Shown one piece after another: positions 51,658 to 59,461 of a DNA stretch of 64,000 bases. Made by a program: the position numbers and the translations under genes. This DNA is from Polaribacter gangjinensis (GTDB lineage: Bacteria > Bacteroidota > Bacteroidia > Flavobacteriales > Flavobacteriaceae): NCBI RefSeq assembly GCF_038024125.1, contig NZ_CP150662.1, forward strand, positions 451,501-515,500, read 5' to 3'. Each line of letters begins with the position of its first letter. Within the stretch, counting starts at the first letter, position 1. The notes under the pieces were generated by a model, which did not search any database, was not told the DNA's origin, and worked only from the letters and a program-made list of their open reading frames with translations.

Positions 51658-52386
51658 TTAGTCCTGCAAATATTTTTTCTCTAATTCAAGTGCTTTTGGA
51701 AAAAGAATATTATTTTCTATATGAATATGATTGTGTAATTTTAACTCAAATTGTTTTAATTTATACAATAACAATTTAAAATTATTATCAATATCAGCAT
51801 ACAATTGATAATGATTTGTATGCTCTTTTATTTGATTCCACAAATTGCAAAATATTTTATGTTGTTTATCTAAATTATGCAAAATATCAATTAAAAAAGG
51901 TTTTTTATCAATAGCTTTTTCAGGGTATTTACTAGGTGAATTCAAAAATAAAATATAGGGAAATAGTGTTTTCTCTTCAATATGAATATGATGTTGAATT
52001 TCGGATGCAATTTTTTGGATGAGTAAAAAAAGTTCTTCAAATTCAGAGAGTTGTTTGCCATGAATTTCAAGAATTTTATTGGCTAATTTTTCAATAAAAA
52101 GAATGTTATCATTTTTAAATGGATGATCTATTTCTACTAAAAAATTTATCAGTAAATCTAAATCCCACACATTATAATTCTTCAAATAGGGTACTTTGCT
52201 ATTGAGAGAATTTAATTCTTTTATAATTTCATCATACTGTAAATGATGTCTTTGACAAAGATTCTGCAAAGAAATATTAGAATTACTATTGTTTGAATAA
52301 TTAATTCCATATTTTTGAAAGACTTCAGCAGCTGCAATATTTTCAACCATAAAGTCAATAACGGTTTTCGAGTTTAAATTATTCAT
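51658..52386 (-). CDS. RIC-like hemerythrin protein lacking the Cys-Cys motif
   Basis: The 242-residue paralog of the iron-sulfur repair di-iron protein has the same layout: an N-terminal DUF542 helix domain and two hemerythrin-like halves with HHIHIEEKTLFPYI, LHNLDKQHKIFC and LHNHIHIENNILFPKALELE. At the position where RIC has Cys31-Cys32 (GIDFCCGGG) this protein has Ser31-Asn32 (GINYSNNSN). The di-iron ligands look intact. The start at MNNLNSKTVIDF is chosen because an upstream in-frame ATG would lie before the predicted start site. Divergent from a decarboxylase gene around a shared FNR-like site. Confidence 0.85.
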   Translation of the reverse strand: MNNLNSKTVIDFMVENIAAAEVFQKYGINYSNNSNSNISLQNLCQRHHLQYDEIIKELNSLNSKVPYLKNYNVWDLDLLINFLVEIDHPFKNDNILFIEKLANKILEIHGKQLSEFEELFLLIQKIASEIQHHIHIEEKTLFPYILFLNSPSKYPEKAIDKKPFLIDILHNLDKQHKIFCNLWNQIKEHTNHYQLYADIDNNFKLLLYKLKQFELKLHNHIHIENNILFPKALELEKKYLQD

Positions 52387-52405: not shown

Positions 52406-52479
52406 CAAATGTGTTTCAAAATTTCAATTAAAAAAATGATAATTATCAGTTGTCAAAATTTTTCATATTTTTTTCTTTG
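52406..52479. promoter_or_regulatory. divergent promoter region with central FNR-like palindrome
   Basis: TGATAATTATCA (52437-52448), a perfect palindrome of the TGAT-N4-ATCA type, sits between two -7-like boxes. These are CACATTTG on the minus strand (52413-52406) for the RIC-like gene and TTTCTTTG on the plus strand (52472-52479, with TTG 52450-52452 at 19 nt) for the decarboxylase gene. The palindrome centre is 29.5 bp from each box. Confidence 0.65.
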
Positions 52480-52497
52480 TACTCAAATCAAAACAAT

Positions 52498-53931
52498 ATG
52501 AAATCACCTTTTGAAATGACTCCAGAAGCAATGACTTCTTTTGGATATAAAATTGTAGATGAAGTTGTAGCACATTACGCCTCTGTAAATCAAAAAAAAC
52601 CTGTAAGTAAAGCGTCAAGAACAGAGATGGATGCTGTTTTTTTACAGGAAGCTCCTGAAGAAAGTATGCCTGCTGAGGATGTTTTGCAATTTGTTATGAA
52701 AAATGTTATTCCGAATTCAAACATTTCTACGCATCCAAAATCATTTTCATTTGTGCCAAGTCCAAGTAATTTTATCAGCACAATGGCTGATACTTTGGCA
52801 ACAGGTTTTAATATTTTTTCTGGAGGATGGATGTTAGCGCCAGCTGCTGCAGAATTAGAAATTGTGACCATGAATTGGTTGTTAAAAATTTTTGATTTTC
52901 CTGTAAAACAGGGGGGAGGGATTTTTACAAGTGGTGGATCAATGGCCAATTTAACGGCTTTAGCAACTGCCAGAAGAATAAAATGTGATACTAATTTTTC
53001 GGATGCAATTATTTATTTATCTGATCAGGCACATTCATCAAACATTAAAGCTATTAGAATTTTAGGCTTTCAAAAAGAGCAAATCCGAATTATTCCTACT
53101 GATAATGAGTTCAAAATCAGTATTAATAAATTAAAAAATGAAATTGCCAAAGACAAATTACAAGGCAAAAAACCATTTTGTATTATTGCTACTGCAGGAA
53201 CCACAAATACTGGTTCAGTAGACCCTTTAGATGCGATTGCCCAAATTTGTGAACAAGAAAATCTATGGTTTCATATTGATGCTGCTTATGGAGGTGCAGC
53301 CATTTTATCTGAAAAAGGAAAAATTGCTTTAAAAGGAATAGAAAAAGCAGATTCTTTAACAGTTGATCCTCACAAATGGTTTTTTCAACCCTATGAAATT
53401 GGCTGTTTGTTGGTGAAAGATAAGTCTTGGTTGAGTTATACTTTTAGTGAAAAACCAGAATATTTAAAAGACATTGAAGGTAATGAATCCGAAATTAATT
53501 TTTATGATTATGGCATTCAATTAACAAGAAGATTTAGAGCATTGAAATTTTATATGTCTATCAAAACATTTGGTTTAAAAGCATTTAGAAAAGCAATTTC
53601 TTACAATATTGACTTAGCAGAGCAAACTGAAAACTACTTAAGAAATAGCAAAAAATGGGAGGTAATTTCATCTGCAAATTTGGCGATCATTAATTTTCGA
53701 TTTCATCCTTTAAAGTATCAATTCGATGAAAAACAGTTGGATGAACTGAATCAAAAAATATCAGCAAAAATGATGGAATCGAAAGAGGCTTTGCTGGTAA
53801 CTACCATTTTACAAAATCAAATTGTGATTAGAATGTGTTTGATAAATCCAAATACTACTTTTGAACATGTAAAAGAAACCTTAGAACAATGTGAGGTTTT
53901 TGGAGATTTATTTTCTAAAAAATATTTATAA
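52498..53931 (+). CDS. PLP-dependent group II amino acid decarboxylase
   Basis: The 477-residue enzyme is of the aromatic amino acid/glutamate decarboxylase type. Visible are FVPSPSNFISTMADTLATGF, GGIFTSGGSMANLTALATAR, the cofactor aspartate and alanine in WFHIDAAYGGAAIL and the PLP lysine in SLTVDPHKWFFQPYE. The start is the ATG at MKSPFEMTPEAM, which follows the expected promoter; an earlier in-frame ATG lies before it. Tyrosine, tryptophan, aspartate or glutamate are all possible substrates. It ends 6 bp inside the convergent Rrf2 gene. Promoter placement suggests co-regulation with the NO-response genes. Confidence 0.85.
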   Translation: MKSPFEMTPEAMTSFGYKIVDEVVAHYASVNQKKPVSKASRTEMDAVFLQEAPEESMPAEDVLQFVMKNVIPNSNISTHPKSFSFVPSPSNFISTMADTLATGFNIFSGGWMLAPAAAELEIVTMNWLLKIFDFPVKQGGGIFTSGGSMANLTALATARRIKCDTNFSDAIIYLSDQAHSSNIKAIRILGFQKEQIRIIPTDNEFKISINKLKNEIAKDKLQGKKPFCIIATAGTTNTGSVDPLDAIAQICEQENLWFHIDAAYGGAAILSEKGKIALKGIEKADSLTVDPHKWFFQPYEIGCLLVKDKSWLSYTFSEKPEYLKDIEGNESEINFYDYGIQLTRRFRALKFYMSIKTFGLKAFRKAISYNIDLAEQTENYLRNSKKWEVISSANLAIINFRFHPLKYQFDEKQLDELNQKISAKMMESKEALLVTTILQNQIVIRMCLINPNTTFEHVKETLEQCEVFGDLFSKKYL

Positions 53932-54366
53932 TCTCTTTTTCAATGTAAAATTAGTATTGTTTTGATATTCTTCCGCCATTTGTAAAATTGTTTTTGTTTT
54001 TAATTTTGTTATCAAAGTTGATTTAAATGGGGCATATAAAAAGTGTACAACACATGGATTTTCCTCATTACAATATTCGTGTCCAAGATAACATTGATTG
54101 AATTTTTCAACAGAATCTACACAGTCAATAACATCAAATAAAGTTTTATCTTTATTTTCATTTGACAAATAAAAACCTCCATTAGGACCCTTTACTGAAG
54201 AAATAATTCCTTTTTTTGAGAGTTTTTGAAGACTTTTTGCTAAAAATGGAGCAGGTATATTTAATCTTTTTGCAATTTCAAGAGACCCTAATTTATTTTC
54301 TAAAGTGGCATTTTTTGTCATATACAAAACTGCCGATATTACATATTTACTTGCTTTTGATAACAT
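53926..54366 (-). CDS. Rrf2 family Fe-S transcriptional regulator (NsrR-like)
   Basis: The 146-residue regulator begins MLSKASKYVISAVLYMTKNA with the Rrf2 winged helix (LGSLEIAKRLNIPAPFLAKS; KGPNGGFYLS). Three cysteines in QCYLGHEYCNEENPC (C92-x6-C99-x5-C105) form the cluster-binding pattern of NsrR/IscR-type proteins, consistent with sensing nitric oxide or iron-sulfur status. The start is set here because family N-termini begin at this residue. A 20-bp palindrome overlaps its -7 element, so it probably represses itself and the divergent nirK operon. Confidence 0.88.
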   Translation of the reverse strand: MLSKASKYVISAVLYMTKNATLENKLGSLEIAKRLNIPAPFLAKSLQKLSKKGIISSVKGPNGGFYLSNENKDKTLFDVIDCVDSVEKFNQCYLGHEYCNEENPCVVHFLYAPFKSTLITKLKTKTILQMAEEYQNNTNFTLKKRL

Positions 54367-54385
54367 TTTTATAAAAATAAAATTT

Positions 54386-54405
54386 AAAAGACAAAAATAT
54401 CTTTT
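54386..54405. promoter_or_regulatory. candidate Rrf2 operator over its own -7 element
   Basis: AAAAGACAAAAATATCTTTT, an inverted repeat (AAAAGAYA-N4-TRTCTTTT). The minus-strand -7 box TATTTTTG (54399-54392) lies inside it, 20 nt before the Rrf2 start. Confidence 0.65.
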
Positions 54406-54410
54406 TTTTA

Positions 54411-54453
54411 TGATATTTATCATATTTTTTTTTTGTTATCTGTTATAAATTTG
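54411..54453 (+). promoter_or_regulatory. nirK promoter with FNR-like activator site
   Basis: TAAATTTG (54446-54453) is the -7 box. TGATATTTATCA (54411-54422) is centred 29.5 bp upstream of it, about -43 from the expected start site. No -33 box at normal spacing, consistent with an activated promoter. Confidence 0.65.
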
Positions 54454-54460
54454 TCTTAAT

Positions 54461-54480
54461 AAAAGATAATATTGTCTTTT
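54461..54480. promoter_or_regulatory. candidate Rrf2 operator at nirK start site
   Basis: AAAAGATAATATTGTCTTTT, a palindrome with one mismatch pair, covers the expected transcription start 8 bp after the -7 box, a repressor position. Same class as the site over the Rrf2 -7 box. Confidence 0.65.
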
Positions 54481-54517: not shown

Positions 54518-55972
54518 ATGAATATTTTAAAAACACTAGGAATTATTATTACAAGTTTATTGTTGATAAGCTGTAATAAAAATGAAAAGAACGAAATAGC
54601 AATCGTAGATCCTGCAGAAATCTATATCAAAGGTACAATAGATGCAGAGTTAACTTCTCCTCCTTTTGTTCCTGCTCCTGTAGGTAACAGAGTTGCTAAA
54701 AAATTATTAGTAAATATGGAAATAATTGAAAAGGAGGGGACTATGTCTGATGGTGTTACTTATGTATATTGGACATTTGGTGGCTCAGTGCCTGGCAGCT
54801 TTATTAGAACGAGAATTGGTGATGTTGTTGAATTTACCTTATCAAATCATCCTGATAATAAACTGCCTCATAATATTGATTTACATGCAGTTACAGGGCC
54901 TGGTGGTGGTGCAGAATCATCTTTTGTTGCTCCAGGACAACAAAAAACCTTTTCTTTCAAAACATTAAACCCTGGTTTGTATGTATATCATTGTGCAACT
55001 GCTCCAGTTGGTATGCACATTGCAAACGGAATGTATGGATTAATTTTAGTTGAACCAGAAGGTGGTTTACCTCCAGTTGATAAAGAATACTACATTATGC
55101 AAGGTGATTTTTACACAAAAGGAGCCAATGGTGAACGTGGTTTACAAGCTTTTGATATGAATAAAGCCATAAAAGAAGATGCTGACTACGTAGTTTTTAA
55201 CGGAAAAGTTGGTGCTTTGACTGGTGATAATGCTATTACTGCAAATGTTGGTGAAACTGTAAGATTATTTGTTGGAAATGGAGGACCCAACTTAACTTCT
55301 TCATTTCATGTAATTGGTGAAATTTTCGATAACGTTCATATTGAGGGAGGATCTACAATAAGTAAAAATATTCAAACTACATCAATTCCTGCTGGTGGTG
55401 CAGCAATCGTTGATTTTAAAGTTGACGTGCCTGGAACTTTTATTCTCGTAGATCACGCCATCTTCAGAGCTTTCAATAAAGGAGCTTTGGGAATGCTAAA
55501 AGTTTCTGGAAAAGAAAACAAAACCTTGTATAGTGGAGTAAAACAAGAGGGAATTTATCATCCTGAAGGCAGTACAATTCAAACTATGCCTGATGAAAAT
55601 GGAAAAAAGACTGCTGAAGTTAAAGTGGTTGAGAAATCATTAACACAAAAAATGAAAGATGGAAAACAGGTATATATGAATACTTGCTTTGCATGTCATC
55701 AATCTGAAGGTCAAGGTATTGAAGGTGCATTTCCTCCACTCGCTAAATCTGATTACTTAAATGCTGATGTAAAAAGATCTATCGGAATTGTATTGAATGG
55801 AAAAACGGGTGAGATTACTGTAAACGGAAAAAAATACAATAGTGTAATGACCAAACAAACCCTTACAGAAGTTGAAGTGGCTGATGTGATGACTTATATC
55901 TACAATTCTTGGGGAAATAATAAAACCAATGTAACAGTTGATTTGGTAAAACAAGTTAAAAATAAAAATTAA
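54518..55972 (+). CDS. nirK: copper nitrite reductase fused to cytochrome c (lipoprotein)
   Basis: The 484-residue enzyme reduces nitrite to nitric oxide. A lipobox ending LLISC (Cys19) anchors it in the membrane. Two cupredoxin domains follow. Type 1 copper ligands are His118, Cys159, His167 and Met172; type 2 copper ligands are His123, His158 and His313; catalytic residues are Asp121 and His264. A C-terminal c-type cytochrome (about 376-465) has CFACH (390-394) and a likely Met ligand in NSVMTKQ, giving a built-in electron donor. It leads the NO operon and is preceded by FNR-like and Rrf2-type sites. Confidence 0.96.
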   Translation: MNILKTLGIIITSLLLISCNKNEKNEIAIVDPAEIYIKGTIDAELTSPPFVPAPVGNRVAKKLLVNMEIIEKEGTMSDGVTYVYWTFGGSVPGSFIRTRIGDVVEFTLSNHPDNKLPHNIDLHAVTGPGGGAESSFVAPGQQKTFSFKTLNPGLYVYHCATAPVGMHIANGMYGLILVEPEGGLPPVDKEYYIMQGDFYTKGANGERGLQAFDMNKAIKEDADYVVFNGKVGALTGDNAITANVGETVRLFVGNGGPNLTSSFHVIGEIFDNVHIEGGSTISKNIQTTSIPAGGAAIVDFKVDVPGTFILVDHAIFRAFNKGALGMLKVSGKENKTLYSGVKQEGIYHPEGSTIQTMPDENGKKTAEVKVVEKSLTQKMKDGKQVYMNTCFACHQSEGQGIEGAFPPLAKSDYLNADVKRSIGIVLNGKTGEITVNGKKYNSVMTKQTLTEVEVADVMTYIYNSWGNNKTNVTVDLVKQVKNKN

Positions 55973-55978
55973 AACAAA

Positions 55979-56740
55979 ATGAAAACAATAGTAAGATTGG
56001 CAGTGACTATGTTGTTTTTAAATTCAATAATAGCAAACTGTCAACCTAAAATGGTAAAAATAAAAGGAGGTACATATATTCCTTTGTATGGTACCAATAA
56101 TCAAAAAGTAACCATTGATAACTTTTATATAGATGTATATCCTGTAACAAATCAAGAGTTTTTAGAATTTGTTAAGAAGCATCCTGAATGGAAACGCTCT
56201 AAAGCATTGAAATTATTTGTTGATGATAATTATTTAAATGATTGGAAATCAGATACTATTTTGAATACAAATCAAAATTTACAATCTCCCATCACCAGTA
56301 TTTCTTGGTTTGCAGCAAAAAATTATTGTGAAGCTCAAAATAAACGATTACCAACTGTTGACGAATGGGAATATGTAGCAATGTCAAATGAAAATATGCC
56401 AGATGCTAGAACTTTAAAAAACTATAATGAGTTTATTTTAAGTTGGTATGAAAAACCAAAAACAAACATTCAAACTATTGGTTCAACTTTTCAAAACTAT
56501 TGGAAAGTGTATGATATGCATGGTTTGGTTTGGGAATGGACTTCCGATTTTAATGCAGTTTTAATTTCAGGTGAATCTAGAAAAGATGTGGATAAAGACA
56601 ACGATTTGTTTTGTGGAAGTGCAGCAGTAAATGCCACTGATTTAATGAATTACGCCGCTTTTATGCGCTATGCAATTAGAGGAAGTTTAAAAGCAAAATA
56701 TACCATGAAAAACTTAGGTTTTAGATGTGTTAAGGACTAA
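55979..56740 (+). CDS. nirV: NirV-like formylglycine-generating-enzyme-fold protein
   Basis: The 253-residue exported protein has the SUMF1/FGE fold: MVKIKGGTYIPLYGTNN, IDVYPVTNQEFLEFVKKHPE, SISWFAAKNYCEAQNKRLPT, GLVWEWTSDFN and the closing NLGFRCVKD. Genes of this type follow nirK in many denitrifiers (nirV). The two catalytic cysteines of true formylglycine-generating enzymes, expected between GSA and the final R-x-x-x-R region, are absent (GSAAVNATDLMNYAAFMRYA), so it should not make formylglycine. A role in NirK maturation is inferred from its position 6 bp after nirK. The signal ends IIANC, an atypical lipobox. Confidence 0.85.
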   Translation: MKTIVRLAVTMLFLNSIIANCQPKMVKIKGGTYIPLYGTNNQKVTIDNFYIDVYPVTNQEFLEFVKKHPEWKRSKALKLFVDDNYLNDWKSDTILNTNQNLQSPITSISWFAAKNYCEAQNKRLPTVDEWEYVAMSNENMPDARTLKNYNEFILSWYEKPKTNIQTIGSTFQNYWKVYDMHGLVWEWTSDFNAVLISGESRKDVDKDNDLFCGSAAVNATDLMNYAAFMRYAIRGSLKAKYTMKNLGFRCVKD

Positions 56741-56753
56741 AAAATGAATTATT

Positions 56754-57467
56754 ATGAAAACACTTAAATACATATTATTTTTTATTGCAATAACTTCATT
56801 TTTAGGTGCTTGCAAAAAGGATATCTCCAAACAAAAAACGGAAACATCCTATCAATGTCCCATGAAATGTGAAGGTGAAAAAATTTACGCAGATGAAGGA
56901 TCTTGTCCAATATGTAAAATGGATTTACAACCTATTGAAGAGGAAGTTAAAAATTTCTCGTTAGAGGAAATTACTGAAACTTCTATTTTTAATTTAACAT
57001 CGAAATGGAATACTGAAGAGGGTGAAGAAATTACGCTTAAAAAGTTAAAAGGCAAAACTTTAGTAATGGTTATGATTTATACAACTTGCAAAGCTGCTTG
57101 CCCAAGATTAGTAGCAGATATGAGAAATATTGAAGTGAAAATTCCGGCAGAATTTAAAAATGAAGTTCAATACATCATGGTAAGTATTGATCCTAAAAAT
57201 GATACACCTAAAAGACTCAAAGAATTTGCGATTGAGAATTTAATGGATGATGAAAAATGGACTTTTTTACAAGGCACTGAAGATGGAGTAAGAGAATTTG
57301 CCAATGTTTTAGCTGTAAAATACAAAAAAATTTCGCCCTTAGATTTTTCTCACTCAAATATCATTAGTGTTTTTAATCCTCAAGGAGATTTAGTACATCA
57401 ACAAGAAGGATTAGGAGTTGATAACAAAATAACTATAGAAAAAATTATAGAAACCGTAAAAAAATAA
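56754..57467 (+). CDS. SCO1/SenC copper chaperone with N-terminal heavy-metal-binding domain
   Basis: The 237-residue lipoprotein (lipobox LGAC, Cys20) has two parts. Residues 33-60 (YQCPMKCEGEKIYADEGSCP, then ICKMDLQP) are a heavy-metal-binding domain like those in CusB and copper ATPases. Residues 68-237 are a SCO thioredoxin fold with the copper-binding CKAAC (Cys112, Cys116) and His200 in LDFSHSNII. SCO proteins deliver copper to cuproenzymes; in this operon NirK is the obvious client (inference). Confidence 0.9.
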   Translation: MKTLKYILFFIAITSFLGACKKDISKQKTETSYQCPMKCEGEKIYADEGSCPICKMDLQPIEEEVKNFSLEEITETSIFNLTSKWNTEEGEEITLKKLKGKTLVMVMIYTTCKAACPRLVADMRNIEVKIPAEFKNEVQYIMVSIDPKNDTPKRLKEFAIENLMDDEKWTFLQGTEDGVREFANVLAVKYKKISPLDFSHSNIISVFNPQGDLVHQQEGLGVDNKITIEKIIETVKK

Positions 57468-57471
57468 AATT

Positions 57472-58197
57472 ATGACAATTACATCAGAAAATACGATTGG
57501 AGAAGTGGTAACAAAAAACATTAAAACAGCAGATATTTTTAAAAAATATGGCATTGATTTTTGTTGTGGAGGAGGCATTACTATCAAAAAAGCCTGTGAA
57601 AAACATCAAATTGATTATCTGCAATTACAACATGAATTGTTGCAAGCCGAAGAAGGAAATCACTATTCACATCAATATGATACTTGGGAATTGGATTATT
57701 TAGCTGCTCATATCGAACATGTTCATCATAAATATGTTGCCACAAACACGCCTATTATTCAACAATATGCAGCCAAAGTAGCAAAAGTACATGGACATCA
57801 TTATCAAGAAGTTATCAAAATTAATGACCTTTTTAACGAAGTTGCAAAAGAATTAGCAGCTCACATGAAAAAAGAAGAATTGATTCTTTTTCCTTTTATC
57901 AAAAAATTGGCTATTGCATCAAAAAATAATGAGAAAATTCGCATTCCGTATTTTGGAACGGTTAATAATCCAATTAAAATGATGGAAGAAGAACACGAAA
58001 ACGCTGGAGAAATTTTAAAACAAATTAAAGAATTATCGAACAATTACAATCCACCAAAAGAGGCTTGCAACACTTTTAGAGCATTGTATGCAAAACTTGA
58101 AGAGTTTGAAAATGATTTGCATCAACACATTCATTTAGAAAATAATATTTTGTTTCCAAAAGCAATTGTTTTAGAACAAAAATTTGGAATTCATTAA
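57472..58197 (+). CDS. ric: iron-sulfur cluster repair di-iron protein (RIC/ScdA/YtfE)
   Basis: The 241-residue protein repairs iron-sulfur clusters damaged by nitric oxide. The N-terminal DUF542 domain includes FKKYGIDFCCGGGITIKKA with the Cys31-Cys32 pair. The hemerythrin-like di-iron domain shows LAAHIEHVHHKYVATN, LAAHMKKEELILFPFI, EEEHENAGEIL and LHQHIHLENNILFPKA. It begins 4 bp after the SCO gene in the nirK operon, so it is made together with the NO-producing enzyme. A paralog lacking the cysteines lies 5 kb away. Confidence 0.94.
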   Translation: MTITSENTIGEVVTKNIKTADIFKKYGIDFCCGGGITIKKACEKHQIDYLQLQHELLQAEEGNHYSHQYDTWELDYLAAHIEHVHHKYVATNTPIIQQYAAKVAKVHGHHYQEVIKINDLFNEVAKELAAHMKKEELILFPFIKKLAIASKNNEKIRIPYFGTVNNPIKMMEEEHENAGEILKQIKELSNNYNPPKEACNTFRALYAKLEEFENDLHQHIHLENNILFPKAIVLEQKFGIH

Positions 58198-58204
58198 TCC
58201 AATT

Positions 58205-59461
58205 ATGATGAAAAATAAAGTTTTTTTAGTAATGTTTTTTTTATTTGTAATTAATACACTTACAGCTCAAAATTTTGATTTAAAGGCAGAAATCAGACCT
58301 AGATTTGAAAACAGACATGGTTTCAAAACCTTGATAAATTCAAATGAAAAAGCAGCTAATTTTATTTCACAACGTTCTCGTTTACGATTTGGATTTACAC
58401 AAGAAAAACTCACTTTAGGAATAGATTTACAGAATATTAGAGTTTGGGGAGATGTAAGTACAATGAACGTTAGTGATAATGGAAGTTCATTTCATCAGGC
58501 TTGGGCATCATATCAATTTACAGAGAATATTACACTAAAATTTGGTCGACAAGAAATTTTATATGATGACAGTCGAATTTTTGGAAACGTAGATTGGGCA
58601 CAGCAAGCAAGAAGTTTTGATGCAATTGTTGCAAAAATTAACATTTTAAAAAGTGGAATTTTACATGTTGGATTTTCTTTGAATAATGACAAAGAGGATG
58701 TTAAAAACACTATTTATTCAAATGTTGCTGGATATAAAAATCTACAATATTTGTGGGCTCATGAAACATTCCATAAATGGAATGTTAGTGTGTTATTATT
58801 AAACAATGGAGTTGAGTTTTTAAATACAAACTCTATTGAAGACATCAGTTATTCTCAAACTTTTGGAGGAAGAGCCACTTATAAAAATAATTCTTGGCAA
58901 ATGGCATTTGCAACGTATTTTCAAACCGGAAAAACATTAGAGAAAACATTAGATGCTAATTATTTTGTAGGTGATATTTCTTATCAAATTAACAACCGAT
59001 TTCAATTTTCATTTGGTGCAGAATATTTATCAGGAACTGATTCTAATGCATCAGATAATATCATTAAGTCTTTCAATCCTTTATTTGGAACGAATCACAA
59101 ATTTAATGGATTGATGGATTATTTTTATGTTGGAAATCATATCAATTCAGTAGGTTTATTAGATTTATATTCGACTTTAGCATTTTCAAAGGACAATTTT
59201 TCTATTAAATTAATTCCTCATTTATTCTCTTCAGCAGCAACTATGTATGATGGAAATTCAAAAATAAATGATTATTTAGGAACCGAAATCGACATGGTTT
59301 TTTCATATAAAATTCAACAAAATATCAAACTTGAAGGTGGATTTTCAAAAATGTTTGCTACAAATTCTATGAGATTTTTGAAAGGAGGAAACCAAAATGA
59401 ATCAAATTATTGGAGTTGGATGATGCTGACTTTTCATCCAAAGTTATATTCAACAAAATAA
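58205..59461 (+). CDS. alginate-export-family-like outer-membrane porin
   Basis: The 418-residue protein has a signal peptide (MMKNKVFLVMFFLFVINTL, cleaved after TAQ). A barrel of about 18 strands follows (LKAEIRPRFENRHGFKTLIN; RSRLRFGFTQEKLTLGIDLQ; LKFGRQEILYDDSRIFGN), as in alginate-export or selective anion porins. The family name does not mean alginate here; as the last gene of the nitrite operon it may admit nitrite or another anion (inference). The start is placed after the RIC stop; an earlier in-frame ATG overlaps that gene. Confidence 0.8.
   Translation: MMKNKVFLVMFFLFVINTLTAQNFDLKAEIRPRFENRHGFKTLINSNEKAANFISQRSRLRFGFTQEKLTLGIDLQNIRVWGDVSTMNVSDNGSSFHQAWASYQFTENITLKFGRQEILYDDSRIFGNVDWAQQARSFDAIVAKINILKSGILHVGFSLNNDKEDVKNTIYSNVAGYKNLQYLWAHETFHKWNVSVLLLNNGVEFLNTNSIEDISYSQTFGGRATYKNNSWQMAFATYFQTGKTLEKTLDANYFVGDISYQINNRFQFSFGAEYLSGTDSNASDNIIKSFNPLFGTNHKFNGLMDYFYVGNHINSVGLLDLYSTLAFSKDNFSIKLIPHLFSSAATMYDGNSKINDYLGTEIDMVFSYKIQQNIKLEGGFSKMFATNSMRFLKGGNQNESNYWSWMMLTFHPKLYSTK

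What the first reader, a model, noticed from the sequence alone, without database searches (positions are those of the whole stretch)
52406..54453. FNR-like palindrome at three promoters with identical spacing to the -7 element
TGATAATTATCA (52437-52448) lies between the RIC-like and decarboxylase genes; TGATATTTATCA (54411-54422) lies before nirK. Both are TGAT-N4-ATCA, the core of FNR/Crp-type sites. The centre is 29.5 bp from the -7-like box in all three orientations: minus-strand CACATTTG, plus-strand TTTCTTTG and plus-strand TAAATTTG. That places the site near -43, close to the class II activator position. Two of the -7 boxes are one-mismatch matches, so part of the fit could be chance. 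It predicts that one anaerobic or NO-responsive Crp/Fnr protein activates all three units; no such gene is in the window.
Basis: partly seen in the sequence, partly recalled or inferred. Interest (0 to 1): 0.75.

Follow-up and report, generated by a model that had tools for sequence, protein, structure and literature searches.

The report
Fixed-spacing FNR switch in marine bacteria
This Polaribacter-like bacterium and many relatives carry the same short DNA switch, at exactly the same distance from the promoter, in front of low-oxygen genes such as nitrite reductase, and an FNR-type oxygen-sensor protein is the most likely hand on it.

Summary
Both palindromes are where stated, and each of the three -7 boxes lies exactly 23 bases from the palindrome edge, so the centre is at -41.5 (not -43). 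Upstream of nirK, TGAY-N4-RTCA-N23-TAnnTTTG occurs in 58 of 81 loci (at most one mismatch; 47 exact); no other spacing from 12 to 35 exceeds 2. In 14 of the other 23 the site leads an upstream norC-type gene. In seven genomes, 73 of 177 listed exact palindrome-box pairs over 31 spacings sit at N23. The genes behind them are mostly anaerobic or respiratory: cbb3 oxidase, copper ATPase, pflB, pta, hemN, nirK, RIC. The genome has one Crp/Fnr protein with an FNR-like E...R recognition helix; 30 of 30 relatives searched have an orthologue. FNR-type class II activation is therefore very likely for nirK and RIC, and weakly supported for the decarboxylase. A second palindrome flanking the nirK site may bind the adjacent Rrf2 repressor; that is unsettled. 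The kind is known. What looks new is the Bacteroidota version: an ATGAY half-site, rigid geometry, a shifted cysteine set, and shared divergent sites.

The parts
52437..52448 (.). Shared FNR-type palindrome TGATAATTATCA between the RIC and decarboxylase genes
52406..52413 (-). -7 box CACATTTG of the RIC gene (N23 from the palindrome)
   Evidence: CAnnTTTG or GAnnTTTG at N23 also in L014, L017, L018, L020
52472..52479 (+). -7-like box TTTCTTTG of the decarboxylase gene (N23); weakly conserved
   Evidence: at most one mismatch in L018 only, 1 of 13
51658..52386 (-). RIC/YtfE-like di-iron protein (ScdA_N weak + hemerythrin domain)
   Evidence: TIGR03652 113 bits, below its cut-off of 204.7
52498..53931 (+). 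PLP-dependent decarboxylase (Pyridoxal_deC family)
54411..54422 (.). FNR-type palindrome TGATATTTATCA before nirK, predicted centre -41.5
54446..54453 (+). -7 box TAAATTTG of nirK (N23); implied +1 at 54458 (A)
   Evidence: position -12 to -5 from PMC9723704
54387..54404 (.). Palindrome AAAGACAAAAATATCTTT, overlapping a TATTTTTG box that reads toward the Rrf2 gene (54392-54399, minus)
54462..54479 (.). Palindrome AAAGATAATATTGTCTTT at about +5 to +22 of nirK, candidate repressor operator
53926..54366 (-). Rrf2-family regulator divergent from nirK, with a C-x6-C-x5-C stretch
54518..55972 (+). nirK, copper nitrite reductase with C-terminal cytochrome c domain
   Evidence: TIGR02376 350 bits, above cut-off
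55979..58197 (+). Co-directional genes after nirK: FGE-sulfatase-domain (NirV-like) 55979-56740, SCO1/SenC 56754-57467, second RIC 57472-58197
   Evidence: kept after nirK in many relatives
58208..59461 (+). Alginate-export-type porin at the end of the same gene run

Best explanation
The palindromes are binding sites of the genome's FNR-type regulator (G000:C1:317768-318454, minus). When oxygen is low a dimer binds ATGAY-N4-RTCAT centred at -41.5, takes the place of the -33 element and recruits RNA polymerase carrying the Bacteroidota primary sigma factor to TAnnTTTG (class II activation). At 52437-52448 one site serves two divergent promoters: RIC very likely, the decarboxylase possibly. At 54411-54422 it switches on the nirK gene run. 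The same unit drives cbb3 oxidase, a copper ATPase, pflB, pta and other genes, so the window holds part of a genome-wide regulon. Shown by computation: the sites, the spacing, their conservation, the regulon content and the presence of the protein. Inferred: the protein-site pairing, oxygen as the signal through an iron-sulphur cluster, and activation as the effect.
For: Spacing: 58 of 81 nirK upstreams at N23, other spacings at most 2, shuffles 0; 73 of 177 listed exact pairs in 7 genomes at N23. Own genome: all 6 exact N23 sites precede an ORF, among them ccoN, pta, type III SQR, MBL-rhodanese and nirK. The one-mismatch hits outside ORFs include the copper-type ATPase, malate dehydrogenase, pflB, pckA, YceI, CBS, RIC and decarboxylase. 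Relatives: 65 of 67 fetched sites lie outside long ORFs, with hemN, fumarase, FTHFS, Usp and cytochrome c among the genes examined. Protein: two Crp-type HTH proteins in the genome, only L001 with the FNR-like E...R helix; orthologues in 30 of 30 relatives; C4, C7, C53 and C106 invariant in 31 of 31. The fnr gene and its divergent neighbour share the palindrome, with the neighbour's box at N23 in 26 of 31 loci.
Against: No binding, expression or 5'-end data. 9 of 81 nirK loci have neither an N23 site at nirK nor one at a norC-type gene (two of them, L028 and L030, hold only about 1.2 kb before nirK). 38 of 44 RIC-type genes and 12 of 13 decarboxylase genes in the loci lack an N23 site with at most one mismatch, though many RICs sit inside the nirK run. 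The FNR of G004 (L120) has A in place of the recognition E while its nirK site is kept. Only two of E. coli FNR's N-terminal cysteines have a counterpart; the third ligand would have to be C53 or the less conserved C29.
Confidence: 0.86

Rival explanations
1. The sites are bound by another Crp/Fnr-family protein, for example a carbon-sensing MalR/Crp-like or an NO-sensing DNR/HcpR-like regulator.
For: The genome has a second Crp-type HTH protein (L003). PMC8510549 (passages) assigned Flavobacteriales Crp/Fnr homologues to MalR-like carbon sensing. Several relatives hold further paralogues of 230-370 aa.
Against: L003's recognition helix reads RVVISR, without the E. The targets are cbb3 oxidase, hemN, pflB and nirK, an oxygen-limitation set. 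In the window's genome no other Crp-type HTH protein was found. HcpR2 sites are GTAACnnnnGTTAC and these regulators lack FNR-type cysteines (PMC1274295, passages).
Confidence: 0.09
2. The palindromes are operators of the neighbouring Rrf2 regulator rather than Crp/Fnr sites.
For: The Rrf2 gene is divergent from nirK and the palindrome lies between them.
Against: Most nirK loci with the site have no adjacent Rrf2 gene. The same site precedes ccoN, pta and others far from any Rrf2 gene. A different palindrome fits the Rrf2 role better.
Confidence: 0.02
3. Chance: AT-rich sequence gives palindromes and -7-like boxes often enough to fit.
For: Two of the window's three boxes have a mismatch; TGATN4ATCA is common (202 in the genome), and 16 of the 31 one-mismatch N23 hits in the genome lie inside ORFs or lack context.
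Against: Spacing statistics in nirK loci and whole genomes.
Confidence: 0.02
4. The site represses rather than activates these promoters.
For: At fnr itself an exact box lies at N9 in 15 of 31 loci (centre -27.5), a position that would block polymerase.
Against: N23 puts the centre at -41.5, the class II activating position (position rule recalled), and a -33 TTTG is replaced by a T-rich stretch.
Confidence: 0.04

Closest known systems
E. coli / Aliivibrio fischeri FNR class II activation (FNR details recalled; alignment)
   Same: Crp/Fnr fold, CxxC near the N-terminus, cysteine at the C122 position, E and R of the recognition helix, TGA...TCA core, -41.5 position, anaerobic regulon.
   Different: Outer half-site base is A or C, with T in only 4 of 71 sites; S212 position is I; no cysteine at the C29 position but invariant C53; Bacteroidota promoter TAnnTTTG instead of -10 TATAAT.
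Neisseria aniA(nirK)-norB region with FNR and NsrR sites (PMC1274295, passages)
   Same: A nirK with an FNR-type activator site plus sites for an Rrf2-family repressor.
   Different: Different phylum, different operator sequence, and the Rrf2 gene itself is the divergent neighbour here.
HcpR2 of Bacteroides and others (PMC1274295, passages)
   Same: Crp/Fnr protein in Bacteroidota tied to nitrogen-oxide stress genes.
   Different: HcpR2 motif GTAACnnnnGTTAC and no FNR-type cysteines; here the motif is ATGAY-N4-RTCAT and four cysteines are invariant.
MalR-like Crp/Fnr of Flavobacteriales MAGs (PMC8510549, passages)
   Same: Crp/Fnr homologue in the same order, studied by regulon prediction.
   Different: That paper predicts carbon sensing and reports no denitrification control by this family in those MAGs; here nirK is a conserved target.

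Membership tests
FNR (iron-sulphur oxygen sensor of the Crp/Fnr family) | Crp/Fnr domain architecture (cNMP-binding fold + Crp HTH) | tested here: met
   PF00027 73 bits, PF13545 59 bits, PF00325 27 bits, all over cut-off
FNR (iron-sulphur oxygen sensor of the Crp/Fnr family) | Four cysteine ligands (E. coli C20, C23, C29, C122; numbering recalled) | tested here: inconclusive
   C20, C23 and C122 have counterparts C4, C7, C106, invariant in 31 of 31; the C29 position does not; C53 is invariant, C29 of this protein is in 23 of 31
FNR (iron-sulphur oxygen sensor of the Crp/Fnr family) | Recognition helix E209-x-x-S212-R213 (numbering recalled) | tested here: inconclusive
   E in 30 of 31 and R in 31 of 31, but the S212 position is I
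FNR (iron-sulphur oxygen sensor of the Crp/Fnr family) | Binding site TTGAT-N4-ATCAA | tested here: inconclusive
   Core TGAY-N4-RTCA is there by definition of the search; the outer T is not (4 of 71 at -48)
FNR (iron-sulphur oxygen sensor of the Crp/Fnr family) | NCBIfam Fnr model over its cut-off | tested here: not met
   Best NCBIfam hit is the Fnr subfamily NF008365, 109 bits against a cut-off of 228; that model covers a proteobacterial subfamily
FNR (iron-sulphur oxygen sensor of the Crp/Fnr family) | Oxygen-responsive cluster and activity | not testable with these tools
   needs biochemistry
Class II activator promoter | Site centred at about -41.5, overlapping the upstream promoter element | tested here: met
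   N23 to a box that spans -12 to -5; by geometry, not by mapped starts
NsrR (Rrf2 family NO sensor), for the gene at 53926-54366 | Rrf2 family domain | tested here: met
   PF02082 88 bits; TIGR00738 88.5 bits over cut-off 73.3
NsrR (Rrf2 family NO sensor), for the gene at 53926-54366 | NsrR equivalog model | tested here: not met
   NF008240 34 bits against 182
NsrR (Rrf2 family NO sensor), for the gene at 53926-54366 | Operator at target genes that co-occurs with the regulator | tested here: inconclusive
   Palindrome in 9 of 9 loci with adjacent Rrf2 and 23 of 72 others at up to two mismatches; in 30 genomes 4 of 8 with the palindrome (up to one mismatch) and 8 of 22 without have a close Rrf2 relative

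The most novel reading that the evidence does not exclude
Flavobacteriaceae, and perhaps much of the class Bacteroidia, run oxygen limitation through an FNR variant with a shifted iron-sulphur ligand set (C4, C7, C53, C106) and its own half-site (ATGAY). It works on a rigid ruler relative to the TAnnTTTG promoter: N23 means activation, N9 means repression of fnr itself, and one palindrome can drive two divergent class II promoters at once. At nirK this switch is combined with a second operator just after the start site, giving an oxygen-and-nitrogen-oxide AND gate.
Probability: 0.4. Interest if true: 0.72.

Novelty: new variant of a known kind. Interest (0 to 1): 0.6.

Why it matters
Gene activation in Bacteroidota is poorly charted because their primary sigma factor reads TAnnTTTG rather than the E. 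coli boxes. A site-to-box spacing this rigid, in dozens of genomes, gives a ready-made rule for reading oxygen control of denitrification, cbb3 respiration and fermentation in a major marine group, and it makes class II activation of this polymerase directly testable. It also gives a genome-mining tool: the rule picked up an unannotated 44-45 aa membrane protein.

Tried and rejected
Reading the palindrome as the Rrf2 operator was rejected: most loci with the site lack an adjacent Rrf2 gene and the site recurs genome-wide.

Small RNA under FNR control was considered for sites with no ORF of 70 aa or more downstream (L010, L149, L212, L214, L159, L207). Rfam gave 0 matches in these six loci; five of the six have a short ORF of 37-61 aa directly downstream; L207 stays without one.

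The genome-wide count of TGATN4ATCA (202 against 43 for the reversed pattern) was not used as evidence, because reversed letters are a poor control for coding bias.

The class-wide pattern count (346 matches in 99 genomes including the window's own, against 12 for the reversed pattern; 81 of 99 with at least one) is only suggestive, since no other spacing was counted there.

The Rrf2 assignment of AAAGAYA-N4-TRTCTTT was tested and left open. In the own genome only 2 exact copies exist, both beside nirK, but up to one mismatch there are 15 places against 17 for the reversed pattern, so there is no genome-wide excess. Its co-occurrence with a close Rrf2 relative is weak.

I first named one relative's gene (L155) a truncated globin; Pfam and NCBIfam gave no family, so that name is dropped. 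Likewise the c-type cytochrome (L163) is not claimed to belong to a nos operon.

Rows dropped before counts: one search used only the matches that one search listed (150 of 193; G016 27 of 35, G023 0 of 22, G025 0 of 21) plus the 27. One search left out the 2 of 67 relative sites inside ORFs. The regulon naming by profile search covered 10 own-genome and 7 relatives' proteins, not all; nirK and RIC are.

Literature: nine searches in open-licence PMC found, in the listings, no account of an FNR regulon or this spacing rule in Flavobacteriaceae; subscription journals are not held.

Full report
What was claimed.

The observation. The letters and coordinates are right. The distance is 23 bases between palindrome edge and box for all three. 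In mapped F. psychrophilum promoters the TAnnTTTG box spans -12 to -5 (PMC9723704, passage), which makes the palindrome centre -41.5. In 71 exact sites outside ORFs, A is favoured at the implied +1 (46 of 71).

Conservation at nirK. I fetched 80 nirK loci from named genomes, nearly all Flavobacteriaceae or unnamed Bacteroidota MAGs. With the window that makes 81 upstream regions of up to 300 bases. TGAY-N4-RTCA-N23-TAnnTTTG is in 58 (47 exact, 11 with one mismatch, always in the box). Spacings 12-22 and 24-35 give at most 2 loci each, and 20 block shuffles at N23 give 0. In 14 of the 23 others an N23 site stands before a gene beginning MLSKKQA about 2 kb upstream. In L027, the one I examined, this is a norC-norB-nirK run. 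Nine loci have neither.

The three units. nirK is strong. For RIC, all 4 loci with a minus-strand RIC gene upstream of nirK (L014, L017, L018, L020) have the site at N23 with C or G as first box letter, so the window's CACATTTG is a conserved form and not a chance miss. Two more RIC genes have it (L033, L067); 38 of 44 RIC-type genes do not, many of them inside the nirK run. For the decarboxylase only L018 of 13 has it with at most one mismatch; L015 and L017 keep the palindrome with a box that reads as N22.

Genome-wide. Exact pairs in the window's genome over 31 spacings number 27, of which 6 are at N23. Adding the listed matches of six relatives gives 73 of 177 at N23; the next are 12 at N24 and 8 each at N22 and N33 (lists partly cut, see Tried and rejected). 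Of the 67 relative N23 sites fetched, 65 are outside long ORFs and 61 have an ORF of 70 aa or more starting within 260 bases. Four of the remaining six have a short ORF.

Regulon. Own genome, exact: nirK, cbb3 oxidase ccoN, phosphate acetyltransferase, type III sulfide:quinone reductase, an MBL-rhodanese protein, and a 45-aa membrane ORF. With one mismatch outside ORFs: a copper-type P-type ATPase, RIC, decarboxylase, PEP carboxykinase, malate dehydrogenase, pyruvate formate-lyase, a YceI protein, a CBS protein and one more ORF. At one mismatch 31 hits were found, 30 of them fetched; 15 of those 30 are inside ORFs, so single one-mismatch hits carry noise. Relatives add hemN, fumarase, FTHFS, Usp, a cytochrome c and fnr itself.

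The regulator. The genome has three cNMP-domain proteins and two with a Crp HTH. Only L001 pairs an N-terminal CxxC with a helix that keeps FNR's E and R. It lies at G000:C1:317768-318454, outside the window, back to back with the copper ATPase. 30 of 30 relatives searched have an orthologue (51-76% identical). C4, C7, C53 and C106 are invariant in 31 of 31; the E is missing in one, L120 of G004. In 26 of 31 loci the palindrome upstream of fnr has an N23 box for the divergent direction. In the fnr direction an exact box is at N9 in 15 of 31 and at N23 in 4. I read N9 (centre -27.5) as self-repression; that is inference.

Specificity. Outside the core, -48 is A 40, C 19, G 8, T 4, and -35 is T in 53 of 71. 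So the site is ATGAY-N4-RTCAT, and the outer T of TTGAT is avoided. This fits the I at the position where FNR has S212 (contact rule recalled).

Shared sites. Of 131 distinct palindromes with an exact N23 promoter on one side, 13 have a box with at most one mismatch at N23 on the other side. Spacings other than 22-24 average 2.6 with a maximum of 5. So one palindrome serving two divergent promoters, as at 52437-52448, is a recurring arrangement.

Second element. AAAGAYA-N4-TRTCTTT occurs twice in the window, exactly, at 54387-54404 and 54462-54479, and nowhere else exactly in the genome. The second copy would cover +5 to +22 of nirK; the first overlaps a box reading toward Rrf2. With up to two mismatches it is in 9 of 9 loci with adjacent Rrf2 (shuffles 0.3 of 9; the pattern was taken from the window, so the window is not independent) and in 23 of 72 others. 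Against an Rrf2 role: co-occurrence with a close Rrf2 relative is weak (4 of 8 genomes with the palindrome, 8 of 22 without), and in G003 the Rrf2 gene is interrupted while both copies stay exact.

Verdict. The kind, class II FNR activation, is known; I found no account of this version in nine searches of the open library (see Tried and rejected). Oxygen sensing, binding and activation remain to be shown at the bench.

Noticed in passing
G000:C1:1590166-1590208 (L010), L149, L212: Exact FNR-type N23 promoter before an unannotated 44-45 aa single-membrane-span protein (MTSQLYNISLVSWTNGIIMIGIF...) shared by the window's genome, Polaribacter marinus and Tenacibaculum gallaicum.
   Followed up: partly
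G000:C1:318454-318540 (between L001 fnr and L097): The palindrome upstream of fnr has boxes at N23 outward and N9 toward fnr, conserved in relatives; in four loci (L140-L143, Flagellimonas and Arenibacter) both sides are N23, as if fnr switched from self-repression to self-activation.
   Followed up: partly
54387-54404 and 54462-54479: Two exact AAAGAYA-N4-TRTCTTT palindromes around the nirK start and the Rrf2 promoter, the only exact copies in the genome.
   Followed up: partly
L015 / G003:C3:105228-105648: In this Polaribacter relative the Rrf2 gene beside nirK is interrupted, yet both AAAGAYA-N4-TRTCTTT copies are exact.
   Followed up: no
L120 (G004, Polaribacter glomeratus): FNR orthologue with A in place of the otherwise conserved recognition-helix E, though the nirK site is kept.
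   Followed up: no
L092 (G000:C1:10965 region): The N23-controlled sulfide:quinone reductase scores best with NCBIfam's selenoprotein subtype model NF049943 (645 bits over 525).
   Followed up: no
G020:C19:204855-287963: In Arenibacter palladensis nine of the 18 exact N23 sites crowd into about 81 kb with several universal-stress-type genes, a possible low-oxygen island.
   Followed up: no
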